Shown here piece by piece: positions 9,921-27,580 of a DNA stretch of 64,000 nt. The position numbers and the translations under genes were made by a program. The stretch covers positions 810,049 to 874,048 of the forward strand of contig MU001673.1 of NCBI GenBank assembly GCA_010093515.1, read 5' to 3'. This DNA is from Lineolata rhizophorae. Lineage: Eukaryota; Ascomycota; Dothideomycetes; Lineolatales; Lineolataceae. Position 1 is the first letter of the stretch. The number at the start of each line of letters is the position of its first letter. The notes beneath the pieces are model-generated. The model did no database searches. It worked only from the letters and a program-made list of their open reading frames with translations, and was not told the origin of the DNA.

Positions 9921-11211
9921 ATGTTTTTCCAACAGACACTAGCCCTAGCCCTCGCGGCTTCAACGGCTGTCAGTGCTCTTCCTTCTTGGTCTGGCAAGTT
10001 TGACAGGTAAGATTTTGCTCTTTTCAACTATAGTTCCATAGCGGGTCTACTAACGTGCTTCACCTAACAGCACAAGAAAGCTTCACCGCCGTCAAGATGA
10101 CATAGCGATGGCAGAACTCTTTTCTAGTCGAGGCAAGTTCTTTGGAACGGCTACCAATTTGCCATACGACGATGAACAATACATGTCGATCTTGGAATCA
10201 AACGAGTTCAGCCAAATCACGCCAGAGAATGCGATGAAACTGGAAAGTCTGGTTCCTCATGCTCCAAGGCAGTACGATTGGACTACCGCCGATGACGTCG
10301 CTGGCTGGGCTTCAAGAAATAACAAAAAGCTGCGTTGCCATAGCCTTATATGGTACAACCACTTGCCCAACTGGCTTGCTAGCGGACGCTATGACAACGC
10401 AACACTCCTTTCGATCATGACGGACCATATCAAGACGGTTGTAAACCGCTACAGGTTTGTTTGCGAGGCATGGGATGTTGTCAGTGAAGGTAAGAGTTTT
10501 TAGTCACATTCCTTGTCCCAGGGTTTTTCCTAGCATACTACTGAATAGGCACTAATACCCAACAGCTCTGAACGAAGATGGCAACCTTCGTGATGACAAC
10601 ATTTGGTACGAACTTATCGGACCCGCATTCATCCCGATTGCCTTTCAGGCGGCCGCGGAGGCGGATCCAGACGCACAGCTTTACTACAACGACTACAACA
10701 TTGAGAAGTCAGGCCGCAAAGTCGACGGCGTCAAGAATATCATCGACTTGATCCGCGCGTCGGGAGCTCGAATCGATGGCGTCGGCGTCGAAGGCCACTT
10801 TATCTCCACACAAGTACCAGAGTACGACGACATGGCTAGCTGGATGCGTGAATTCACGGACAAGGGAGTCGACGTAGTATTTTCGGAGCTTGACGTCCGG
10901 ATCAGGCTGCCCGGGGACCACAGCAAGCGTGGCCAGCAGCGCGAGGAGTACGGGACCATCTGCGCCGCTTGCAAGAACAACTCACGTTGCAGGGGTATCA
11001 CGGTTTGGGTGCGTGCTCCCAACGTTTCATTGCCTAGCTGCCGATCTGCTATCAGCGACTGACGGTTTTCGCGTTTTAGGATTTCACTGACAAGTATTCC
11101 TGGATACCCGACCACTTCGACGGCTACGGCGACGCTTGTATGTGGAACGACGACCTTGAGAAGAAGCCCGCATATCAAGGATGTTCCGACGTCTTTGAAG
11201 ACGACGATTAA
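9921..11211 (+). CDS. Secreted GH10 glycoside hydrolase with altered active-site residues
   Basis: Exons 9921-10006, 10071-10489, 10566-11008 and 11080-11211 encode 359 residues, the usual length for a single-domain GH10 enzyme with no carbohydrate-binding module. An N-terminal signal peptide (MFFQQTLALALAASTAVSA) is followed by a possible dibasic processing site (HRR). GH10 landmarks in order are TPENAMK, RCHSLIW, WDVVSEALNEDG with the acid/base Glu168, YYNDYN, GVEGH, FSELDVR with nucleophile Glu276, and GITVWDFTDKYSW. Both catalytic glutamates are kept. However, the Asn normally just before the acid/base Glu is Ser167, the WHSQ segment reads WYNH, and the Gln before the second active-site His is Glu. 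Canonical GH10 enzymes are endo-1,4-beta-xylanases; some fungal GH10 members act on glycoalkaloids (tomatinases). The substitutions suggest changed substrate or weakened activity. GH10 fold is certain; xylanase activity is not. Confidence 0.9.
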
Positions 11212-11699
11212 TGCGACTGGACACTGGATTTAATGGGTACTTTTTGGGCACATAGCACGGTAGGCTCTGGGTCTCGACTGTTCTTCTCGTTCATGGGTTA
11301 CACACATACATAGGTACACACTGGGGTTTACCGGTCTTTTTAACGATTCAAAGATAGTGGCTATTTAATTATACGATATGAGATGGATTTTTTCCCTTGG
11401 GAACCTCTATTCTAACTAAATTCCAAGTGTTAAAAATTGCTCGGGCTACACCTTTCAATCGCCCTAAACGGGTCTTTTGCGGAGTGCAACGGTTACCCTT
11501 TCCCTTCAGGCGCGAAGCGACAATTGCTCGACTGGTTTAACTTTTTCGTAAATGCCCATAGGCAGGTGTCCCACGACTGGCCGCCACAGGTCATGGGTGG
11601 AGGGTACGGACTAATAATCAGGGTAGCGAATAAGCTCCTAGCCCATGTTATGCACTATTGTAGGAGGCGGCATTTTGCTGTTAGTAGTGTCTCTACTGC

Positions 11700-12360
11700 G
11701 ATATATTATTATTATTATTAACTCTTACATCCTTTGAAACTAACGTCTATGGGGAGCTTCTAACCAGCGTCTATTTATAGGTAAAACCCTCTGGAAAGAA
11801 AACCTATCGCACTTTATCACCCCTGTCCTCTCTGGGCACTCGTAGCTAATTTTGTACCTATAAGGTAGCTGTCTGAAACCGTAGCTAGGGGAAGTTAGCC
11901 ATAGCTGGTTCCAGGCTCCCTCTCTCCCGTATAGCAAGCGTCCTGCTGACCTAAACTGCTGGATCCCCAGGTGCTGTATTAGCCACCTGGTAGGTTTAAT
12001 GTTCGCTTTAAGTCTGTAAGTTGTGCCCTGTAATCCAGAGAACCTCGCCTGTCCCTAATCTGTTCCCTCGCCTCCCGCAAGCCCAGGCAGTAGATAAGTA
12101 TGTATCGTGGCGTCTAATTTCCCCCTCCGTATTAGCATCGCCCGGATGAGAACCGTAGGACCTTTGCCTTTGCAAGGAACAGCGAGTCCTATTCGTATCC
12201 TTGCCTGAACAAGGATAGAGCTTTCTGCTTTCCTAAGTTCCTTGTACCTATTTTTGTGCCTATTTAGGTGACTGCCGTGCGGAGGTGTTTCAATTACGTC
12301 CCAGTATGTCTTTGGGGGAATCTTCTGCGAAGTCACCCTCCGCTCCTGTAGTGCCCTCTG
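11700..12360 (-). mobile_element. Decayed 3' end of a Tad1-like LINE
   Basis: Read on the minus strand, 12199-12245 gives KELRKAESSILVQAR, matching the conserved segment after the RNase H region in fungal Tad1-clade LINEs (remembered form ...ESSILVQARTGRIGL...). About 100 bases on, in another frame, comes YCLGLREAREQIRDRRGSLD (about 12030-12090), the next conserved block of the same tail. So at least one frameshift and several in-frame stops separate the two, and the copy is inactive. Farther downstream on the same strand a run of TAA units (about 11705-11722) could be the simple-sequence tail typical of LINE 3' ends. No reverse transcriptase region is recognisable upstream, so the insertion is 5'-truncated or eroded. 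Assignment rests on remembered motifs. Confidence 0.6.
11705..11722. repeat. (TTA)n microsatellite
   Basis: About five TTA/TAT units, on the minus strand (TAA)n. It lies just past the LINE-like sequence and may be its tail. Confidence 0.6.
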
Positions 12361-12440
12361 CCGGATCTAGGTTCCTTGGGCTTGGTCGAGCGGGCCCCTC
12401 TATTGCGATATACATGTCCGTTATTAATCGTTATACCTCA

Positions 12441-13210
12441 ATAGGGTTATTTTAGCAATCGAACTGACGTAGACAAAGATGTGGTGATATTAGAATAGTC
12501 TTTGGTGAAGATGCGGTGACAGTCTTCAAGCTCGAATCGACGACTTACAAATCTTACCAGGGATGCTAGCATAGTATGCAAATGGAAAGCATCCAAAACG
12601 CCACTTCGCTGCAGAATACCCAACACCATCCTAAACATACTCACTAGCACAAAGAGTAGCACCTAACCTATTAGACTTCCAATCTAGAACTATCTATCTT
12701 CCCAGCCCGGAAGGACTCGAATTAAAGAGAAACTATATTAGTCAAGACCCACTCCATGCCTGTATCTGGCAGCGTCGATCAGAACGCTCATGTACGTAAA
12801 AGCTAAGAAAGATGTGTGTGGCTTTTTCTGTCCAATTCGTCAACCCATTATTATCCCCATTTCGTTTCCGCTCAAATTATTAAAACGTAGGAGTACATGT
12901 GGCAGTAACTCCGTAGCAGTGAAATGCGCTCCGTGAGGCAAATGCAGCGAGAAGAATAGTAAATGGAAAGGCACCAAATAACTCACTGTAGACGAGGAAC
13001 GAGATGCAATGAACGCTCCGAAGATCAAACTCCACGCAAGAAGAAATGCCAAAATCACATGCCGAAAGTAGCACCAAAACCGGAACTATAGGACGGAGCA
13101 GGAAGGCTTGGGAAAGTAAAAACCGCTACCCAAGCCGCTCTTCCTTCGACAGCGCAATAGAAAAGCATCAGCATCCAAAACAGCCAACGCACCACCCTCT
13201 TCCTCTCCCC
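12441..13210. other. Intergenic, no gene recognised
   Basis: AT-richer spacer between the LINE relic and the 3' end of the next minus-strand gene. It probably includes that gene's 3' UTR near 13100-13210. Short open frames here show no family features. Confidence 0.5.
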
Positions 13211-16200
13211 TCACTGCATAATACTCTGCCTCCATCGATCAATCATATCCCTCTGCCTCTGATCCATCGGCGGCTGCTGCGCCGCATGCGCCGCGCCGGG
13301 ATCAAACGCCGGCCCCATTGCCCCCATAGCTCCCATGCCGCCCATGCCCATGCCCATGCCCATTCCCATGCCGCCCGTGCCGCCGCCGCCCATGAACATG
13401 CCCCCAGGGGTACCGCCGCCGCCGCCGTGCATGCCGGGCGCGGCGCCGCCGGCCGCCCACCCCATGCCTAGGGGCATCCCGACGCCCGACATCTGCATCT
13501 GCATCTGCGTCTGCATCGGCATAGACATGGACATGGGCATCTGGTACCCCATGTTCAGCGAGGGCATCTGCATCTGCTGTTGCTGCTGCTGTTGCTGTTG
13601 CTGCTGGAAGGCCATAAAGCCCGGCACGGCGCCTGGTCCCATACCCGCAGTTGCGCCGTATCCCTGCTGCAACCCGCCATTCACCGCCCCAGCAGCGGCG
13701 CCGGCCCCAACACCGCCAGTCCCATCGTTGTACATTCCCGCCCTAAACGTCGCCCCCTCCCTCTTCGCAGTTTCGTTCGCGCCTAGTAAGCCTCTCGCAC
13801 CCGCTGCTCCCGCAGCAGCGACACCGGCACCAGCACCATTAGCACCCCCCACATCAACAAGCGCCTGACCGCTAGCCCTCCGCCCAGCACCATTCCCCTC
13901 CTTCAGCGTCTGCCTTTCCCTCGCCTTCACCCTCTCCGACGCATGCAGCAACCCGCCCGGCACGGGCCTACCCTCACCTCCACCTCCTGCTCCACCTCCT
14001 CCCGCTCCTCCTGCGCCACCCGCCGCGCCAGCCTCGCCCATCGGATGCGCCGCCAGCAGGTCCGCCAGGCTACGCATCGACTTCAAGCCAGGGGCGCCGT
14101 GGCCGCCGTTGACGCCGCCGGCGCTACCGCCCGACGCCTGGCGCGGGCCCGTGCCGGGGCGCGGGGCGCCGGCGACTCCGCCGCCACCGCCGCTGCTCCC
14201 GCCTGTGAGCTGGTTCTGGGCCTGCAGGCGGGCGCGGCGCTGGCCGAGCGTTTCGCCCTCGTCCTCGGCGTCGTGGTGCTCGGGCTTGTCGGCGCCCGTG
14301 GTCTCGCCTTCGGCGCCGCCGGGGCTGCCCAGGGAGCTCATCATCTCGGCGGCGAAGTCGGTGCTGACGGGCCGGCCTATGGCCGAGTTAAGCTTCTCGC
14401 GGCTCTTGAGGCGGCGGGTGCGCTGCGCGAGCGTTTCGTCCGGGTCGCCCTCCGCATCTGCGTTCGCGTCTACGCCCGGGGCGGCAGGGGTGGTGGCGCC
14501 AGGCGGACTCTCGCCCGGCTGCGGCGACGGCAGATGCGGGCTCGGCGTGCCGCCGTTCTGCATGTGCAGATGCTGCTGCACCGCGCCCGCGCCGGCGACG
14601 GCCTTCTTGGGCGGGCTGGGATCGCGCGCGATATCCGCCCCGCCGCCCCTGAGCCTGTTCCTGCGTCGCGACAGTGGCTCGTTATCCTCCAACTCCCTCT
14701 TCTCGATGAGCCCGAGCGGGCGGTCCCAATCGAGGTCGCCGCCGGCCGCTCCTCCGTCCCCGGCGGCGCCGCCCGCGCCCCCGCGCCCCTTGAACAGCAC
14801 GCCCAGCGGCACGTCGTCGTCGTCGCGCCGCGCCTGCTCGGCCGCCGCCAGTGCGTCCGGGTCCTCCCAGGCCAGTGCGACGCGCTGCCCGCGGCGGCGG
14901 CGCGCCTCCACTTGCGCCACCGCGTCGAGCTCCAGCAGCGTGCTGTGCATGCCGTGGGGGAAGGCGTTGGCCGCCGTGCGGGTGCGCTGGCGTTGCTGCT
15001 GCTTGCGCAGCTGGAGCTCCGCCAGGAGCGTCGTCGGAGGCCCCGTCGCCCACGGTGGGACCTCGGACGGTTCCTCGGCGTCCTCGGAAGGCTTGAGGTG
15101 CTCTTCGGCCTCGTCCGGGTGACGTGACCGGTCCTCGTGGTCATCGTCTAGGTGATCGCCCTCGTCATCGGCTTGCGGCACGCGCCCGTCCGCGCGCGCC
15201 ACGCCCACGCCCTCGTCCTCCTCGGCCGGTCCATCAGCCCAGGACCGCCCCCTCAACGGCGTCGTCTCGCCCGCCCGCTCCTCCTCATCTTCCTCATCAC
15301 TCGGTGCAATCGCCGCGCTGCCCCTCCTTTCCCCTCCCACCGCCGCCACCGCCGCAGCCGCAGCGCCATGTAGCCCGCCGATCTCAGACCGCAGCCCAGA
15401 GCTCGTCGTCCTGCCCTGCTGCTGCTGCTGCTGCTGCCCACCGGCACCTCCCTGCATCGGCAGCTCAGAGCTACTTACGGACCTCCTCCCGCCCCCAAAC
15501 AGGAAATTGAAGCTCGACCTCCTCTTAGCCGCGTTCGCCGCCGCCACACCTCCCGCGCTCCCCCCGCTCGTCTCCCTCTTCTTTCCCCCATCCAGCAAAG
15601 TCGTCACGCTCCTACGCGCCGCCTTGTTCTCCTTGCCGTACACGGCGTCGCTGCCGGCCCCGCCCGCGAACGGGTGATCCGTGAAGGCGTTGACGGGCGC
15701 CCGCGCGCTCGCCTCCAGGATGCTCTCCAGCGTCGCCACCGCCGAGTCGCGCTTGACCTCGACGTCGTGGGGCACGCTCTGGGCGTCGAAGAAGAGGCTG
15801 GCGCGCAACTGAGGCGGCAGGTGGGCATGGTGATGCGCTTGGGCCTCAGCGCCGCTGCCGCCGCCGCCGCCCCTCGGCTTGCCTCCTGCTGCCGCCGTCA
15901 CGCCCGTCATGCTGCCCGCCGCGCTGCCCGCCGCTGCGGTCGTCATCGCCGCATCGCCGGACGATCGCCGCGCCGACTCGCTCGCGTTGTCGCGGCCCCC
16001 GCTACCACCGCCGCCGATCCAGGGCACCGCCTTGCGCACATCCGCCGACAGGCTCTCCAGCAGCTGCGTGCGGCGGCGCGACTGCAGGTCGCGGGCTGTG
16101 CTGGCTGGCATGGCCGAGAGCCGCTTCGGTAGGTTGAGGGTGCGCGGCACGGGGGCGGGGTAGTACACCATGCCGTCGGCCGGAGGCGGGACGCCCTGGC

Positions 16201-17545
16201 TGTCCGGGCGAGGCACGTCGCAGAGAAAGAAGCTAGAGGTGTCGGGATCATCAGGAGCGGACGAGTGCCGGGACGGGGGAGTGGTGGGCGAAGCGGCTTC
16301 GTGGATCGTGGGCTCGTAGTGCGTGCCGTCGAAGTCGCGGAAAAGTGTCTGGGCTTGTTGGAAGGTGTTTGTGGAGGCGGCGGTTGGGGGCCGGTCGGGG
16401 AAAGATTCGCGGTGCGAGGATGGCGAGATCGGGTGGTCGTGGTCGCGGTTGTATGTGCTGTGGCGGTGGGCGGGGTTTTGGTTGTAGTTTTGGTCATTAT
16501 AGTTTTGCTGGGAATATGCGTAGTCGTGCACATCCTGCTGCTGCTGCTGCTGTGATTGTTGTTGTTGCTGCTCCTGCCTGAACGGATCCTCCAACAAGTC
16601 GTGAAATGCCAGCGGTGCGTGGTCCTCCTGCTCGGGCGTCCGCGACTTGGGCGTCCCCATGACGTCGAGCTCCGCCCGTATGTCCTGCGCGATCTTGTCG
16701 TAGTCGTCGAGAAACGATATCGGCCTGCTATTACTGCTGCTACCGTCGCGCGGCGGTGGACGCGGCTGCTGTAGCTGTGGCACCTCGACCGGCGGGCGCT
16801 GGTGGTGCTCCAGCGCCTGCAACGTTGGCGAGTCCACCTGCCTATCGCGGTCATCGTCGTCGTTCTGATCCTCCTCGTTCTCCTTGCCGTATCGATTGTC
16901 GTCGATTCCGGCGACCAAGCCGAGGCGAGAGCTTCGCGAGGTGGTACGCTGGCCCAGCGAGGGGCGCGAGACGTGCGACCACGAGGCCGAGCCCGAGCGG
17001 CCCGCCGGGCTGAGCGGACTCGTGATGAAGGCGGCGGCCGGGGAGTAGCCGCCGGCGCGGGCGGCCGAGTTGACCTCGACGATGGAATTGGTGTAGGAGC
17101 TGGTCGACGGGTTCCGGGAGCGGCTGCTCGCCGTGGCCATGCCGGCGGCAGGGCCGGTGCCGGCGGCGGTGCCGGTGCCGGTGCCGTTATTCCCCAAGGG
17201 CCCAGTGCCGGTGCCGCCGCCGCCGGCCGACGCGACGCGGCTCAGGGCGCGGGCGCTCTCGCGCAGGCTGCCCTCGCGGCTCAGCAGACGCACCTCGCGC
17301 TCGCGGCCCTCGTCCTCGTCGGCCTGGGCGAGGGCCAGCTGCAGCTTGCGGATCTCGTCGGCCATGTTGGAGCCCATGGAGAGGCGCTCGGCGCGCTCCT
17401 CGAGGCGCTCGACGCGCTGCGCGTAGGCGCCCTGGAGCGACTGCAGGTCCGGCGTCGGGTGCCGGAGCTCCGTGGCCGTGGTGGGCGTGCTGGTGCAGGA
17501 CGAGGATGGCGGTCGGATGGGTTGGGGAGAGATGGGCGTGGCCAT
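13211..17545 (-). CDS. Very large low-complexity protein of unknown function
   Basis: A single open frame of 1444 residues from the first ATG (17545 on the minus strand); the frame stays open upstream without an ATG, so a 5' exon is possible. Near the N-terminus is a predicted coiled coil (LQSLQGAYAQRVERLEERAE then MADEIRKLQLALAQ), which looks like the most conserved part. The rest is mainly disordered: Ser/Pro-rich, poly-Gln, poly-Gly/Ala and acidic stretches. A short motif recurs in variant form in the C-terminal half: ETLAQRTRRLKSRE, ETLGQRRARLQAQ and EPLSRRRNRLRG. A Met/Gln-rich segment (about 13330-13610) precedes a compact end, MDQRQRDMIDRWRQSIMQ. I do not recognise a named family; I believe similar proteins are annotated as hypothetical in other Pezizomycotina. 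The three QRR-type repeats may be short linear binding motifs. It is divergent from TFIP11. Confidence 0.8.
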   Translation of the reverse strand: MATPISPQPIRPPSSSCTSTPTTATELRHPTPDLQSLQGAYAQRVERLEERAERLSMGSNMADEIRKLQLALAQADEDEGREREVRLLSREGSLRESARALSRVASAGGGGTGTGPLGNNGTGTGTAAGTGPAAGMATASSRSRNPSTSSYTNSIVEVNSAARAGGYSPAAAFITSPLSPAGRSGSASWSHVSRPSLGQRTTSRSSRLGLVAGIDDNRYGKENEEDQNDDDDRDRQVDSPTLQALEHHQRPPVEVPQLQQPRPPPRDGSSSNSRPISFLDDYDKIAQDIRAELDVMGTPKSRTPEQEDHAPLAFHDLLEDPFRQEQQQQQSQQQQQQDVHDYAYSQQNYNDQNYNQNPAHRHSTYNRDHDHPISPSSHRESFPDRPPTAASTNTFQQAQTLFRDFDGTHYEPTIHEAASPTTPPSRHSSAPDDPDTSSFFLCDVPRPDSQGVPPPADGMVYYPAPVPRTLNLPKRLSAMPASTARDLQSRRRTQLLESLSADVRKAVPWIGGGGSGGRDNASESARRSSGDAAMTTAAAGSAAGSMTGVTAAAGGKPRGGGGGSGAEAQAHHHAHLPPQLRASLFFDAQSVPHDVEVKRDSAVATLESILEASARAPVNAFTDHPFAGGAGSDAVYGKENKAARRSVTTLLDGGKKRETSGGSAGGVAAANAAKRRSSFNFLFGGGRRSVSSSELPMQGGAGGQQQQQQQGRTTSSGLRSEIGGLHGAAAAAVAAVGGERRGSAAIAPSDEEDEEERAGETTPLRGRSWADGPAEEDEGVGVARADGRVPQADDEGDHLDDDHEDRSRHPDEAEEHLKPSEDAEEPSEVPPWATGPPTTLLAELQLRKQQQRQRTRTAANAFPHGMHSTLLELDAVAQVEARRRRGQRVALAWEDPDALAAAEQARRDDDDVPLGVLFKGRGGAGGAAGDGGAAGGDLDWDRPLGLIEKRELEDNEPLSRRRNRLRGGGADIARDPSPPKKAVAGAGAVQQHLHMQNGGTPSPHLPSPQPGESPPGATTPAAPGVDANADAEGDPDETLAQRTRRLKSREKLNSAIGRPVSTDFAAEMMSSLGSPGGAEGETTGADKPEHHDAEDEGETLGQRRARLQAQNQLTGGSSGGGGGVAGAPRPGTGPRQASGGSAGGVNGGHGAPGLKSMRSLADLLAAHPMGEAGAAGGAGGAGGGGAGGGGEGRPVPGGLLHASERVKARERQTLKEGNGAGRRASGQALVDVGGANGAGAGVAAAGAAGARGLLGANETAKREGATFRAGMYNDGTGGVGAGAAAGAVNGGLQQGYGATAGMGPGAVPGFMAFQQQQQQQQQQQMQMPSLNMGYQMPMSMSMPMQTQMQMQMSGVGMPLGMGWAAGGAAPGMHGGGGGTPGGMFMGGGGTGGMGMGMGMGMGGMGAMGAMGPAFDPGAAHAAQQPPMDQRQRDMIDRWRQSIMQ

Positions 17546-19003
17546 TGCGGGCGTTGGCGCCGCGCGGCTTGTAGGCGGCCGGGCTTCGGAAGAGTGGTTC
17601 GCGGCCGGGCGTGTGGTTGGCCGGCCCGGCAGTGGCGGAGGCGCAGTCGGTGGTGGAGCACCTCTGTTTTCGTTTATTGTGGGGAACAACGCCGCGGGAA
17701 GACCAGACGGCGAATGGGGTCGAGGAGAAAGGCGAGAGTGTCCACCGCACGTGTCGTGAGTGGCGGGTAAGATTCAGTCGAGAGGGCCCGAAGGGCGTCC
17801 AGCCCGTCCGATCTCGTGAGAGAAAACGGGATTGGGGGGGTACGGAGTAGTAGTATGTATGTAAAAGTGGCAAGGCGGAAACGAAGCGATCGACAGGAGA
17901 GTACTCCGGGACTAGCGAGTGAGAAAAACTAGAAGTAAAGAGGAAGCAAGAGCAAAAACAAAAAAAAGAAAGACAAGGGAGAACGGGGCACGACGGGCCC
18001 TACATGTATGCGGCGGAAGGAAGGCCGAGGGAGATTGAGGCCGCGATAAGTATTGGCAGACGGGGCCGGTCGCGTGTGCAGCAGCGAGATGCAGAGATTA
18101 GTAGATTGTCGCGGATGGGGAAAACACGCGGGCGCGCGGACGGGAAAGGGCGATGGGCGGCCAAGGGGGAGGGGGTGGGTTGTTTGGAGGCTCCCCGAGG
18201 CGGCTTCCCCCCCAACGAGAGGCCCGCGGACGCTGATTTGCCCCTGCCCTTGCGCCCGCTGCCGCCGCAGGGAAGCGGGAGGCAGCGCCCAGGGCCCGCC
18301 GGCGCTCGAGGCTCCTTCGGCGGCAGCCACCAGATAACGCTCCTTCCCGCGGCCTCCAAAAGGCGCCCGCGGCCGCCGCTGCCGCTGCCACTGTGCCGGG
18401 CGCGCTTTCCTGCCTTGCCGGCTTGCGGGCCGGGGGCCACTTATCGCGCAGATGAGAGGCATGAGCCGCGGTCGGGCCGTGGTTTCCTCCCCCTTGGCCG
18501 CCGCGATAACGCCTTCCTGCCGGCGGAAAGGGGAGCTCCCAAGCTGCTGCCGCTGCCCTGCGCCGCTGCAGGCACTTCCGAACCCGTCTTCCACCAGGTG
18601 GCTTGGCGACACACGTCGTGCGTATCACAATTTCACTCTCCTACATACACGTACGTCCAAGTCGCGACCTGACGGGGCCTCCCCGTAGCTCTCGTCGCTG
18701 GCGAATGATAAGGTCTTTCTCGACCCATACAGGTGTTGATTGAACATGGCCCCGGCCCCGGCCCCAGCCTTGTGGGACGTGCGCCTCGGCCGGGATGCCC
18801 CAATCTGAAATTCGCCAAGCCCGAGACGTCGGCCTCCGCGCCTGCACACCCGCGTCGTGGCGCGCGTTGTCGTCCCTGCCTTTGCCCACTACGCCACACG
18901 TCACGCACCGCCGCACCGCAGAACCTCCATTACCTCGCTTCCGTGACGTACCATATCCGCGACTTCTGCCGCCGCTACCCCCACCCGCGCGTACGTCGAC
19001 ACC
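17546..19003. other. Divergent promoter region between the large unknown gene and TFIP11
   Basis: About 1.46 kb, very GC-rich in its middle (18100-18560). Open frames on both strands here are a by-product of base composition. It must hold both promoters and leaders. No further element is supported. Confidence 0.5.
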
Positions 19004-21643
19004 ATGGAGCCCTTCCCGCCGAGCAAGCGCTCCTTCGCCACCGACGACGATGACGGCGACGACGACGACGACGACGACGCCGCCGCCGCGTCTGGGAGCC
19101 GCAAGACGCCTCGCTTCGCCGGCGTGGGCGCGACCGCTCGCGACGGAGGCGGGAACAAGAGATCTACCAACGCCGGCGCCGGCGGCGGCAGCAGCAGCAG
19201 TGGCAAGATGTCCTTCGCGGCCAAGATGATGGCCAAGATGGGCTACAAAGAAGGCACGGGCCTGGGCAAGTCGGGCGAGGGCATCCTGGACCCCATCGAG
19301 GTGAAGTTGCGGCCGCAGGGCGCGGGCGTCGGCGCCGTGCGCGAGAAGACGGCGCAGGCCAAGGCCGAGGCACGGCGCGCGGCCGAGCGGCGCGGCGAGC
19401 AGTACGAGAGCTCGACCGAGGAAGAGGAGCGGAGGGCGAGACGCCGGAGGGACCGACGCGCGGAGAAGACGACCAGGCAGGCCGGCGGGGTCAGCAGCGG
19501 AGCGAGCACGCCTGGAGGAGCTTTCGTCAAGGCGGCCAAGCCCAAGTACCGCACTGCGGCGGAGATCGAGGCCGGCGCCGAGGGCCTGCGCGTCCCGAGC
19601 GTGCTCAAGACCCTCATCGACGCGACGGGCCGCGAGACGAGGCTCCTGACGTCGACGGCCGGCCTGCTGCTCGCGCCCGACGCCGCTGCCGCCGCCGAGT
19701 CCGAGACGGACAAGATCGCGCGCCGGGCCCGCGCGGAGCTCGAGAGCTTCGCCGCCAGCTGGAACGAGGTGGCGGCGCGCAAACGTTTTATAGACGACGA
19801 AGAGCAGGAACTGCAGCGGCGGCTCGCGGAGCAGGACGCCGAGCTGGCGCGTGCGGAGGGCCTGCTAGCGGCCATTGACGGCCTCGCGGCGCTGTCATTC
19901 GACATTAACGCTGGGCCGAGCGGCCGCATGCTCGACCTCGACATCGAGTACGAGGACGTCGAGTCCACCGACGCCGTCTGGGAAACCCTAGTGACGCGCC
20001 TCGAGGCCTTCCAAGCCGCCTACCCGCCCGACCTGCTGGCGGCCTACAACCTGTCCGCCGTGGCCGTGTCGGCCATCCAGCCGCTCTTCAAGGCGTGCAT
20101 GGCGACCTGGGACCCGCTCGCGCGCCCGGCATACCTGACGGCCTACCTGGAGCGCATCCGCCCCGTGCTCGGCATCGACCGCCGCCGCGCCGCCTTGGAC
20201 GAGCTCAACAGCAATACCAAAGGCACCTACGATGACTTCGACCTCGCCGCCCGCCGCCATCGCGTCCTCCGCAACAGCACCTTCTACGAGACGCTCATCC
20301 AGGCCCACTGGCTGCCGCGCGTGCGCTCCGCCCTCACCAACAAATGGAAGCCGCGGGACCCGGCGCCGGCGCTCACGCTCGTTGAGGCCTGGTCCTCGCT
20401 GCTGCCGCCCTTCGTGTACGACGCCGTCGTCAACGACTTGGTCGAGCGCAAGCTCGCTGGGGCGCTTCACGCCTGGAATCCGAGGAAAGCAGCGGCCGCG
20501 AAGAAAGCGACGAAGGCGAAGAAAGGCGAGGGCGAAGAAGGCGACGACGACCTCCCGCACCACTGGCTCTTCCCCTGGCTCCCGCACCTGGCACCGCAGC
20601 ACGTAGACCCGCGCTCTCGGCACGGCCTCCTCGCCGACGTGAAGCGCAAGCTGCGCTCCGCGCTGCGCAGCTGGCCGCTGCTCCCGACGGCACCCGACTC
20701 GGGCTCGGGCTCCGCCGCCGCCCCCGACGCTCCAACAAGCACGCCGCCATTCCCCGGGCTCGCCCACTGGCGCGACGTCCTCGGCGGCGACCAGACGGCG
20801 GCCCTCCTTCTCGACGCCCTCGTCCCGCGCCTCGCCTCCCTCCTCAGCACCGCCTTCGTCGTCGACCCGGCCGACCAGGACCTCGCGCCGCTGCAGGCCG
20901 TCTTCGCCTGGGCCGAGTCGGCGCCCGCGGCCGCCGACGGCGTCCCGCAGCGCGTCCTCGCGCGCCTCTTCGCCGCCCGCGCGCTGCCCGCCTGGCTCGC
21001 CACGCTGCACGCCTGGCTCTCGGCCGAACCCAACTACGAGGAGGTGGGTCAGTGGTTCGAGTGGTGGCGCGGCGGCGCCGGCGGCACGCTCCCGGCCGCC
21101 GTGTGCGACGATGCCGCCGTGCGCGCCGGCTGGGACGAGGGGCTCCGGCTCGTCAATGCCGCGCTCGACCTTGGGCCCGACCGCAGGGCCGAGATCCCCC
21201 CGCCCGACCTATCCGTCGTCACGGGGCCAGGGGCGCCAGCTGGCGAGGACGACGACGGGGCCAGGGGCGATGGCTTGCCCGTTGCTGCGGCTGCCAATGA
21301 TGTGGCGGCAGCGACGCCGCCCGCGCCCGCGCCCCCGCCGCAGGCCCCGCTCGAGGAGCCCTCGTTCAGAGACGTGGTCGAGGCGTGGTGCGCGGACGAG
21401 GACCTGCTCTTCCTGCCGGTGCGCGAGGCCGAGCCCGCGTCCGGGCTGCCGCTGTTCAGGCTGACGGCGAGCGCGACGGGGAGGGGGGGCGTGCTAGTGT
21501 ATTTGAAGGGAGATGTGGTGTGGGCGCAGAGGAAGAGGGGCGGAGCGGGGAAGGAAGGGGCTGCTGCTAGTGGGGGCGGTGGGGGTGGGTTTGAGCCGGT
21601 GGGGTTGGGGGAGGAGTTGAGGAGGAGGGCCGAGGGGAAGTAG
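19004..21643 (+). CDS. TFIP11/Ntr1-type G-patch splicing factor
   Basis: Intronless, 879 residues, start in good context (CACCATGG). After an acidic N-terminus comes a G-patch at about residues 71-115 ([20 protein letters not shown]). A charged coiled region follows (about 115-165), then the long helical GC-rich-sequence-binding-factor-like domain (about 190-700) that defines the TFIP11/STIP/Ntr1 family. The C-terminus has the conserved [20 protein letters not shown] segment. In yeast and human, this protein recruits and activates the DEAH helicase Prp43/DHX15 through its G-patch to take apart the intron-lariat spliceosome in the nucleus. Family length is usually 700-900 residues, so this is complete. 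Low-complexity Gly/Ala near the end is GC-driven. Confidence 0.93.
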
Positions 21644-22785
21644 GTGGGGGGAGGGAAGAGGTCCGGTGCGATGTGGGTGGGTGTGGGAGGAAGGGGAGCG
21701 GAGGTGGATGTGGCGAGAATTCTACGGGCTGCTGGGAAGAGGGAAAGCCGGCTACGATTGGGGTGCGCGTTGCGTCCGGTTTGGCCTTGTTGATGATGGG
21801 CGGCTGCTTCCACGGGCCTTTCTCTTCTTGCTCTTTCCCGAACGACATGCCCGTCTTCTTTTCTTTTACCTCTTTCTTCGAGCTTTGGGTAAGGTCACTT
21901 TTTGAGATTTTCGTCCCATCCATCGAACGGACATTGCGCCCTTACGTCATTGCTAATTTGGGCGTTTTACGTGGCGGCAAACGTGGGGAGAGAGGGCTAG
22001 GCACGAAACATTCTTTCGATCGAGGATGGCTGCCATGTACACTGAATAGTGCACAGGAGAATGTGGGCAAGAGTTCGGTGCGTTAGGGGGGTTAGTCGAA
22101 AGCCGGGACTACTACCCATGGTGGTCCTGATGGTAGTCAATGTACTATTATTGTAATGTGTGTTCTGTGTGATCGTTTCGAGTGACGGAGGCGCTAAGGA
22201 ATTGGCATTAAAGTAGCGCGATGAGAGATCCGGGTGGAATTGATGTCAATCAATCGTAAGATAGAGGTTACTTTATCAGGTATTGCTAGAAGGGACGCTT
22301 CTATATTCACTCGAGGTGCCTACCATACCATATGCTATAACAGCAATGGAATTACGCAGAATGGTTTCAAGTTATCTAGGCCAGTTTGTTTGTTTGCTTG
22401 GCAAAGGTTTTTTGGGAGTATATGCATGTCTTGCTCTCTCAGGTAATCGCTCGGATCTATTGATCGAGTTAAGACTATGTAATATTGCACACTGCTCCAC
22501 TTTTACGCATGATAAGTTCCATGATTCGAGGCTCCAATATACTCAATATTCCCGGTTGCCCTCTCGCGACGCTAGAAACAAACATAATTTGCTACTCTCT
22601 GCTACCACTGCAGTGCTGTAATATTAGTTTCAAATACAGTATAATCATTAGAGCGAAAGATGAAAGTGTTAGGCTTACTGATGAAAGATAGAACACTTTT
22701 TACTAGCTGCAAGCTCCAATCGCCTAGCGGCCACCAATTGCAAACCTCTCCACATTTTCACCACGCCACATGGCCGCTCACTCCT
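21644..22785. other. Convergent intergenic region
   Basis: Spacer of 1.1 kb between the 3' ends of TFIP11 and the MAPEG gene. It is AT-rich from about 22100 on. No gene, RNA or repeat recognised. Confidence 0.5.
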
Positions 22786-25406: not shown

Positions 25407-27580
25407 CTACAAACCCGAATCTTGCTTCGGGTAGATGGAGTAGTCGTTGAAGTAAGTTTCCCAGTTGGTGCAGACACGTTCCCACTCACCGTCCGGCAAC
25501 GGCATCTTCTCTTTCGACTCGAGAAACTGCACACCTAGTCCCTCGGATATGTGCCATGCCTAAGTGAATCTCCCAGGTTAATCCAGGACGTCGAAAGCCA
25601 TCGATTTCAGCGAGTAAATGGGTGGTTTCAACTTACAATATGGCAATGAAGAAGCCAACTGCCCGGATTGTCGCTCTGGAATGCAATCGCCATCCAACCA
25701 CGTCCGGGAAGGAGAGCAACATCCCGTCGAGGCGGATTGTCGAACTTGAGCTGGTCGATTGACGTGTTGATGTCGAATGTGCCCGTGCCAGTGCCGAGTA
25801 TGTAGAAGTCGTGGCCGTGCAGGTGCATCGGATGCGGGACGGGGATCGGGGTGCCTTCGACTTCCTGGATGATCCAGTACAGCCACTGTTTTGAAGAATG
25901 ATACGTTAACCGTCTAGGTTCTAGGACCAGAATTAAGCCGGGACAAATGAGAACTAACGGCAGCGGCGCGCGGCACCTCAATCAGGTTGTAGGTCCGCGG
26001 ATACGACTCATTTCCCTCCTTGACGTACTGTGCCGTCGGCTTATCCCAGTCGATGTCAATCGCCGTCATGTTGACGGCCCACACCACGATGTTCTCCTGG
26101 TTCGTCGTCACCTGCTCGACGGCCAGATCGACCATGAGATAGCCGAGCTGCTCCGCGAACGGCTCCTTGGGCACCTCCGTCGGCACGTACGGCTCCGATT
26201 GGGGATCCTCGCAACCGCCGGGCGCGTCGGTCCCGATCGAGGTCGGGTCGCTGTCGGGCGCTCCGTCGTACCGGAAAATGCTACGCCCGTAGAACTTGTT
26301 CCCGCTAGCGCAGGCGTTGGCGACTTCGGCACGAAACCAGTAGTTGTCGATAGGTTGGTCGGTTTCGATGATGACTTCGTACCTTTGACCTATTACGTCG
26401 TACATGTTTTAGTACACCTTGAAAGACAAGAAATGCAGAGGACGCGAGTCTGGAAATACCGATTGCAATTAACAACCAGTCTGTTGTGAAGGGCACAATG
26501 GGGACCAGGTCGTTCGTGATTACTTTCAACTTGTGGTTGTCGAGAGAAACACGGATATTGTTGTCCACGGCTCCATTGATGAGACGTAGCATATACTTGT
26601 AACCTTGCTGGAGCTGCACCACATCGTACGCTCCGCCGCCGTCAGGATTCTTGTTCGTGCCGTTGATCAGGATGTTATCACCAGGGGGGGCGGGAGCTCT
26701 GTTCTGCAGATTATCGGCTGCCTGGTCTTCGACCTGAAACGCAGTATCATAGTACCAGTCGCTGATGAAGTAAGTGCCGAGATCCACGTCGTAGTTTGCC
26801 GTCGTGGGGCCGTTGATAACTAATCCGCCTGTGATGCCGTCTCCGTACTGAGCCGAGTAGTGCGAGTGATACCAGGCTGTTCCGAACTGGGTGCATTTGA
26901 AAGTGTAGGTTTTGGAGTCGGTGGGCGCAATAGGGCCTAGGTTCATCCAGTAAGCTTTGTGGCATTTCATGAAGCAATACAACGTGAACTTACACTCCGT
27001 GATTCCGTTGGTTCCGTCATCCAGGTTGCTCAAATATTGGCGAATTCCATGCCAATGAATGCTGGTCCCGTTGTGCTGGAGCTGGTTGTTGACAGTGATT
27101 TGAAGGGTGTCGCCCCAATCTATTCTCTAATCAGCCGAAAGGTAAAAAAAGCATGCTGAACAGGCATGACATACCAGCGTATATTGTAGGCCCAGGAGAT
27201 TGGTTGTTTACCAAGAAGCACAATCGCTCCGGGCCACCATCTGGGCTGCATGTTGTGTTCGTGATATCAAGAGTATACTAAATAAACATTAGGAGACTAA
27301 GCGATAGGACGTAATTTCAGGGTGGTCACTTTACTTGAACGACATTCCCTGTGTCAGGCCAGTCCACATCAAAATCGGTGTTTATGCTAAAGCCATCATT
27401 CCAACATCCCCTGCTCAGAGGACCATTCCTACAGCCGTCGTCCATCCCCCTGCCATGTTGGTGGTCTGGATCTCGAGCAACGATGGTTGCGTTTGATAAG
27501 TAGTGGTTAGGAGGGATGTACTCTGAAAAAGAAAAACAAGTACACGCAAGAAAAGCACCCAAAGCCAAAAATAGACGCAT
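25407..27580 (-). CDS. Secreted ascomycete laccase (multicopper oxidase)
   Basis: Seven exons (27580-27335, 27277-27175, 27119-26994, 26936-26460, 26389-25959, 25885-25637, 25559-25407) give 594 residues. A signal peptide ([19 protein letters not shown]) precedes three cupredoxin domains. All copper ligand motifs are present: [27 protein letters not shown] and [14 protein letters not shown], the last with Leu at the axial T1 position. The chain ends in KQDSGL, the C-terminal plug of asco-laccases, which is normally trimmed after the Leu-containing tail has shaped the trinuclear site. The enzyme oxidises phenols with reduction of oxygen to water, outside the cell (lignin, humus or pigment chemistry). 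All six introns are in frame, so the gene looks functional. Confidence 0.95.

What the first reader, a model, noticed from the sequence alone, without database searches (positions are those of the whole stretch)
9921..11211. GH10 enzyme with the Asn before the acid/base Glu changed to Ser and other altered subsite -1 residues
Seen: WDVVSEALNEDG (codon AGT at 10483-10485), WYNH in place of WHSQ, GVEGH in place of the usual GxGxQxH, MKLES in place of MKWD/E. Known: in GH10 the Asn before the acid/base Glu binds the 2-hydroxyl of the -1 sugar and is nearly invariant; the His and Gln of WHSQ line the same site. Both catalytic Glu are kept and the gene has intact splice sites and signal peptide, so it does not look like random decay. 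It may act on another substrate (fungal GH10 tomatinases show the fold can be re-used) or be a binding-only protein.
Basis: partly seen in the sequence, partly recalled or inferred. Interest (0 to 1): 0.75.

Follow-up and report, generated by a model that had tools for sequence, protein, structure and literature searches.

The report
Fungal xylanase relative with altered active-site
What looks like a fungus carries an intact, probably secreted member of a well-known plant-cell-wall enzyme family in which two rarely changed active-site residues are different, so it may be weaker or act on something else, but what it acts on is unknown.

Summary
The gene is real: four exons (9921-10006, 10071-10489, 10566-11008, 11080-11211), 359 aa, GH10 by Pfam (3.3e-88), both catalytic Glu kept, Ser codon at 10483-10485 as stated. 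MKL for MKW, and the changes in WHSQ, sit at columns that vary among GH10 proteins; solved enzyme 6q8m has WYNQ. The two that hold are Asn167Ser and Gln244Glu: among 96 aligned sequences only this one has Ser+Glu, 86 have Asn+Gln. The Asn is not invariant: 7 Thiobacillus-type sequences carry Ala. The nearest paralog (48% identical, sister at 100/99) is canonical at the motifs discussed. Simple decay is unlikely (intact frame and introns; omega = 1 rejected on this branch), but synonymous sites are saturated, so recent relaxation cannot be excluded. Most likely it is an old GH10 paralog, still a folded glycosidase with reduced or shifted activity. A binding-only role or a saponin substrate is possible without positive evidence.

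The parts
9921..10006 (+). exon 1: start codon and signal-peptide-like N-terminus
   Evidence: translation, donor gtaaga; signal peptide judged by eye
10071..10489 (+). exon 2: N-terminal half of GH10 domain up to the acid/base Glu
10483..10485 (+). codon 167 AGT (Ser) where 88 of 95 other aligned GH10 sequences have Asn and 7 Ala
10486..10488 (+). codon 168 GAA, acid/base Glu (kept)
10354..10362 (+). YNH of WYNH (often HSQ); columns that vary in GH10
10240..10242 (+). Leu86 of MKL (mostly W, F or M); variable column
10566..11008 (+). exon 3: C-terminal half of GH10 domain
10790..10792 (+). codon 244 GAA (Glu) where 93 of 95 other aligned sequences have Gln and 2 Glu
10886..10888 (+). codon 276 GAG, nucleophile Glu (kept)
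11080..11211 (+). exon 4: DFTDKYSW stretch and C-terminus, stop TAA 11209-11211

Best explanation
It is an old, intact, probably secreted GH10 paralog that most likely still folds and works as a retaining beta-glycosidase, but with a re-tuned -1 subsite. Shown: both catalytic Glu, the Lys of MK, the two conserved His, the Asn of YND and the Trp residues of the last strand are kept, while the Asn before the acid/base is Ser and the Gln of GxGxQxH is Glu. Inferred: Ser gives a weaker contact to the 2-hydroxyl of the -1 sugar, and the new carboxylate changes the acid/base environment, so activity on xylan is lower, or the pH optimum or preferred sugar differs from that of the canonical paralogs.
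For: GH10 Pfam match 3.3e-88 over residues 43-352. Catalytic and most contact residues kept. Frame and three GT-AG introns intact; the C29 paralog reads with the same four-exon layout (its exon-1 border was my choice among six frame-compatible donors). The window protein and C29 are sisters (100/99) with end branches 0.68 and 0.51, no strong acceleration. In a 3-sequence codon model of 287 codons omega = 1 on this branch is rejected (lnL -2796.36 against -2781.83). The gene's composite RIP index is negative, -0.23. Ser at this place does not stop sugar binding: complexes of a Streptomyces GH10 N127S/E128H double mutant include a Michaelis complex with Xyl5 and a covalent intermediate (table in PMC5811086, passages). 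A lineage of Thiobacillus-type GH10 sequences has Ala here (7 of 90 loci; motif in 7 of 61 genomes of one family, of which the 4 fetched loci read as GH10-like open frames of 487-680 aa).
Against: No activity data and no structure model. The 2-hydroxyl contact is thought to matter much for catalysis (general knowledge), so activity could be near nil. dS is saturated (NG86 2.76 against C29; branch lengths at or near their bound), so the omega value is not to be trusted and recent relaxation cannot be excluded. Base composition differs between the three codon-model sequences (GC3 0.61, 0.75, 0.87), which that model does not allow for. In the Streptomyces double mutant the acid/base was changed too, so it does not prove that Ser beside Glu works. 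Whether the Ala lineage is active is unknown.
Confidence: 0.55

Rival explanations
1. Substrate switch: the altered -1 site serves another glycoside, such as a plant saponin or an amino sugar, and the protein is no longer a xylanase.
For: Two conserved contact positions changed together while the catalytic pair is kept. GH10 tomatinases are known (PMC8960721, passages; PMC3510045, passages), and GH10 is named among ginsenosidase families (PMC10653915, passages).
Against: No sequence or neighbourhood evidence for such a substrate: of 8 open frames scanned out of 46 of at least 220 aa, 5 had Pfam matches: Nup96, multicopper oxidase, TOG/Stu2, GCFC/G-patch, protein kinase. No tomatinase sequence was compared. 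Trp residues and most sugar contacts kept.
Confidence: 0.17
2. Binding-only or decoy protein: catalysis is lost, the groove still binds xylan, or the protein meets plant inhibitors or receptors.
For: Loss of the Asn contact should hurt catalysis (general knowledge); the gene is intact with long-term constraint.
Against: Both catalytic Glu are kept; a protein freed from catalysis would often lose one.
Confidence: 0.15
3. Recently relaxed gene, in the first stage of decay in this isolate.
For: GC3 is lower than in two paralogs (0.61 against 0.75 and 0.87); the gene's RIP indices lie nearer the usual thresholds than those of the whole window, and the 1-kb bins from 11001 and 12001 are positive; recent relaxation cannot be seen with saturated dS.
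Against: No stop, frameshift or broken splice site; composite RIP index of the gene itself negative; branch only a little longer than its sister's (0.68 against 0.51).
Confidence: 0.08
4. Base-calling or assembly error at the Ser codon.
For: One genome only; reads are not held.
Against: A second change at a conserved contact (Gln244Glu) in the same protein; clean frame elsewhere.
Confidence: 0.05

Closest known systems
GH10 paralog on contig C29 of the same genome (L010)
   Same: Four-exon layout, Cys positions by eye, catalytic Glu; 48% identity, sister in the tree
   Different: WHSQ, WDVVNE, GIGLQSH and MKW as usual
Solved GH10 chains 6jdt, 6q8m, 3u7b (deposited as beta-xylanase or endo-1,4-beta-xylanase)
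   Same: Three of the five best PDB sequence matches, E 5.3e-97, 6.2e-89 and 1.9e-87; same domain and catalytic Glu; 6q8m has WYN as here
   Different: All three have Asn before the acid/base and Gln in GxGxQxH
Thiobacillus-type GH10 (L031, L032, L039, L041, L042, L043, L047)
   Same: Also lack the Asn before the acid/base and keep both Glu
   Different: Ala not Ser, Gln kept in GxGxQxH; bacterial; the two put in the tree are far from the window protein
Streptomyces olivaceoviridis xylanase N127S/E128H (laboratory mutant; PMC5811086, passages)
   Same: Ser at the same position, substrate complexes obtained
   Different: Acid/base also mutated; made in the laboratory
GH10 tomatinases FoTom1 and CfTom1 (PMC8960721, passages)
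   Same: Fungal, secreted, GH10
   Different: Sequences not compared; act on alpha-tomatine, which nothing found here points to

Membership tests
Glycoside hydrolase family 10 (sequence family) | significant match to the GH10 domain over its length | tested here: met
   PF00331 3.3e-88, profile 3-309 of 311
Glycoside hydrolase family 10 (sequence family) | catalytic acid/base Glu and nucleophile Glu at family positions | tested here: met
   E168 and E276; E in 90 of 90 loci at both columns
Glycoside hydrolase family 10 (sequence family) | (beta/alpha)8 fold | not tested
   no model made; implied by 45-47% identity to three solved chains
Canonical GH10 endo-1,4-beta-xylanase | Asn before the acid/base (near-invariant, not definitional of GH10: 7 of 90 loci have Ala) | tested here: not met
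   Ser167
Canonical GH10 endo-1,4-beta-xylanase | Gln of GxGxQxH (near-invariant) | tested here: not met
   Glu244; 93 of 95 others have Gln
Canonical GH10 endo-1,4-beta-xylanase | hydrolysis of xylan with retention | not testable with these tools
   needs an assay
GH10 tomatinase | groups with known tomatinases in a tree | not tested
   no tomatinase sequence was compared
GH10 tomatinase | release of tomatidine and lycotetraose from alpha-tomatine | not testable with these tools
   needs an assay; activity as described in PMC8960721 (passages)

The most novel reading that the evidence does not exclude
A fungal GH10 lineage in which the Asn/Gln pair of the -1 site has been exchanged as a unit for Ser/Glu, giving a new -1 specificity, for example a sugar whose 2-position is not a plain equatorial hydroxyl, or a saponin glycone.
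Probability: 0.13. Interest if true: 0.6.

Novelty: new variant of a known kind. Interest (0 to 1): 0.3.

Why it matters
If the Ser/Glu pair marks a conserved fungal clade, it would be a natural experiment on a residue that most GH10 proteins keep (88 of 95 others here), and would show how the -1 subsite of a retaining glycosidase can be re-tuned without touching the catalytic pair. If it is confined to this genome, it is a curiosity of one paralog. The Thiobacillus-type Ala lineage makes the wider question, what replaces the Asn contact, testable in bacteria too.

Tried and rejected
Rejected as a measure: counting all departures from conserved columns. At the 95% level the window protein has 2 (Gln244Glu and Asp339Asn), and 8 of 95 others have as many or more; at the 90% level it has 6 (among them Asn167Ser, which drops out at 95% because of the Ala lineage), and again 8 of 95 others reach that; at the 98% level it has none. 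So it is not exceptional by count, only by where two of the changes lie. Pairwise dN/dS: dS saturated, the YN00 method failed, ML dS values of 12-29 are meaningless. Rfam at gathering thresholds and a tRNA scan of the window: nothing (the tRNA scan used the bacterial code). NCBIfam: one match far below cut-off (120.4 against 1200 bits). A PDB search with the last 57 residues gave 26 chains with nothing beyond GH10-type names.

Papers: tomatinase+GH10 (14 papers listed, 3 opened for passages; none of the passages shown speaks of the residues at issue), N127S+xylanase (1, passages read), GH10+pseudoenzyme (1, listing only), conserved asparagine/subsite wording (1, passages read), Asn126/Gln203 (1, listing only, a carboxylesterase), N127/H207 (0), neofunctionalization (0), 'lack xylanase activity' (0), subsite wording (0). 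None of what I saw reports the Ser/Glu variant; subscription papers and unread parts are not covered.

Limits of the survey: the 80 bacterial loci are the best 80 of 307 found with peptide patterns [IMV][TV]PENAMK and N[NG]K[KYE]LRCH, so those motifs are biased by selection; the 10 viral loci were found with [TV]PENAMK and WDVV[NS]EA, so the Asn/Ser column is biased there; near-identical loci were not merged. The Ser pattern covers AGY codons and WDVVSEA only: 0 of 394 genomes. The Asn control was run on 98 genomes of the same class, 10 with a match and 28 matches listed, not checked gene by gene for being GH10. The structure tool was not used, because its stated rule takes proteins that the DNA gives letter for letter, and this one is spliced.

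Full report
Observation. The window lies at 810049-874048 of contig C4 in a genome of 31 Mb in 48 contigs; short GT-AG introns and frames such as a Nup96 and a Stu2/TOG protein fit a fungus, but its name is not known. The gene reads as four exons, 9921-10006, 10071-10489, 10566-11008 and 11080-11211, with introns of 64, 76 and 71 bases, and codes for 359 residues. Pfam gives one domain, GH10, 3.3e-88.

Which substitutions matter. I aligned 80 bacterial and 10 viral loci with the window protein and two paralogs. At the column after MK the 90 loci have W 45, F 23, M 17, S 2, P 1, L 1 and one gap; in WHSQ the His column has H 61, Y 7 and others, the Gln column Q 64 and others. The solved chain 6q8m has WYNQ, and the active xylanase XynSPP2 has Ser at what I take to be that Gln (PMC6614494, abstract and passages). 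These changes are therefore ordinary. The Asn before the acid/base is N in 83 and A in 7; the Gln of GxGxQxH is Q in 88 and E in 2; both catalytic Glu are E in 90 of 90. With two paralogs and three PDB chains added, 86 of 96 sequences have Asn+Gln, 7 Ala+Gln, 2 Asn+Glu, and only the window protein Ser+Glu. PMC6614494 names an Asn just before the acid/base and a Gln two residues before a His among substrate-binding residues, which by their spacing are these two. As a wider check the Ser pattern (AGY codons only) was absent from 394 genomes of one bacterial class, while the Asn pattern was in 10 of 98 genomes of that class.

The other side. By number of departures from conserved columns the protein is not extreme: 8 of 95 others have as many or more at the 95% level, and 8 of 95 at the 90% level. 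And the Asn is dispensable in evolution: the seven Ala sequences all read WDVAAEA and keep both Glu, the Gln and the PENAMK Lys; 5 of the 7 records are titled Thiobacillus, the others Rhizobium and Proteobacteria. The motif recurs in 7 of 61 genomes of that family; the four loci fetched there read as open frames of 487-680 aa with the GH10-like LQMH and EMDV stretches.

Relatives in the genome. At least four GH10 loci were found (the search gives lower bounds). The C29 gene reads with the same exon layout, is 48% identical and canonical at these motifs; the C8 gene is canonical there too and 70% identical to 3u7b; the C21 gene, which I did not splice, has DVVNE, WHSQ and SQSHL. In a tree of 19 proteins the window protein and C29 are sisters at 100/99, with end branches 0.68 and 0.51. 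So this is an old duplication, and by parsimony the changes arose on the window gene's own branch (inference).

Constraint. Against C29, third codon positions differ most (0.60, against 0.38 and 0.31 at the first and second). In a three-sequence codon model with 287 codons, omega fixed at 1 on the window branch costs 14.5 log units. Branch lengths reach or approach their bound, so the omega value itself is not to be trusted, and recent relaxation would not show. The gene's composite RIP index is -0.23 (window as a whole -0.41), although the 1-kb bin from 11001, which covers the gene's last 211 bases and its 3' flank, is at +0.43 and the next at +0.07.

Mechanism. In GH10 the Asn contacts the 2-hydroxyl of the -1 sugar, and the Gln of GxGxQxH lies near the acid/base (both recalled from structural work, not computed here). 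Ser is shorter and Glu adds a charge, so I expect a weaker 2-hydroxyl contact and a changed acid/base environment. That Ser allows substrate complexes is shown by the N127S/E128H mutant of a Streptomyces enzyme (PMC5811086, passages), though there the acid/base is changed as well. A reduced or shifted glycosidase is my first choice (0.55), ahead of a substrate switch (0.17) and a binding-only protein (0.15).

Verdict. Real, partly over-read, and of modest interest. It is a GH10 protein by sequence; it should not be called a xylanase or a tomatinase until assayed. The test that would raise the interest, recurrence in other fungi, is simple but needs data not held here.

Noticed in passing
L031, L032, L039, L041, L042, L043, L047 (GH10 genes): A lineage of GH10 sequences, 5 of 7 in records titled Thiobacillus, has Ala in place of the Asn before the acid/base (WDVAAEA) with both Glu and the Gln kept; the motif is in 7 of 61 genomes of one family. 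What a GH10 enzyme does in these bacteria is open.
   Followed up: partly
L037 and L098: Two other GH10 sequences have Glu for Gln in GxGxQxH, but keep the Asn.
   Followed up: no
window 13001-22000: A block of 63-76% G+C next to a 46-52% G+C stretch that holds the GH10 gene; it carries a 1520-aa open frame on the minus strand (13211-17773) with no Pfam match at 0.001, and a GCFC/G-patch protein at 18947-21643.
   Followed up: no
window 11001-13000: Two 1-kb bins with a positive RIP index (0.43 and 0.07), mostly just downstream of the GH10 gene.
   Followed up: no
window 26305-27126: Minus-strand open frame with multicopper oxidase domains.
   Followed up: no
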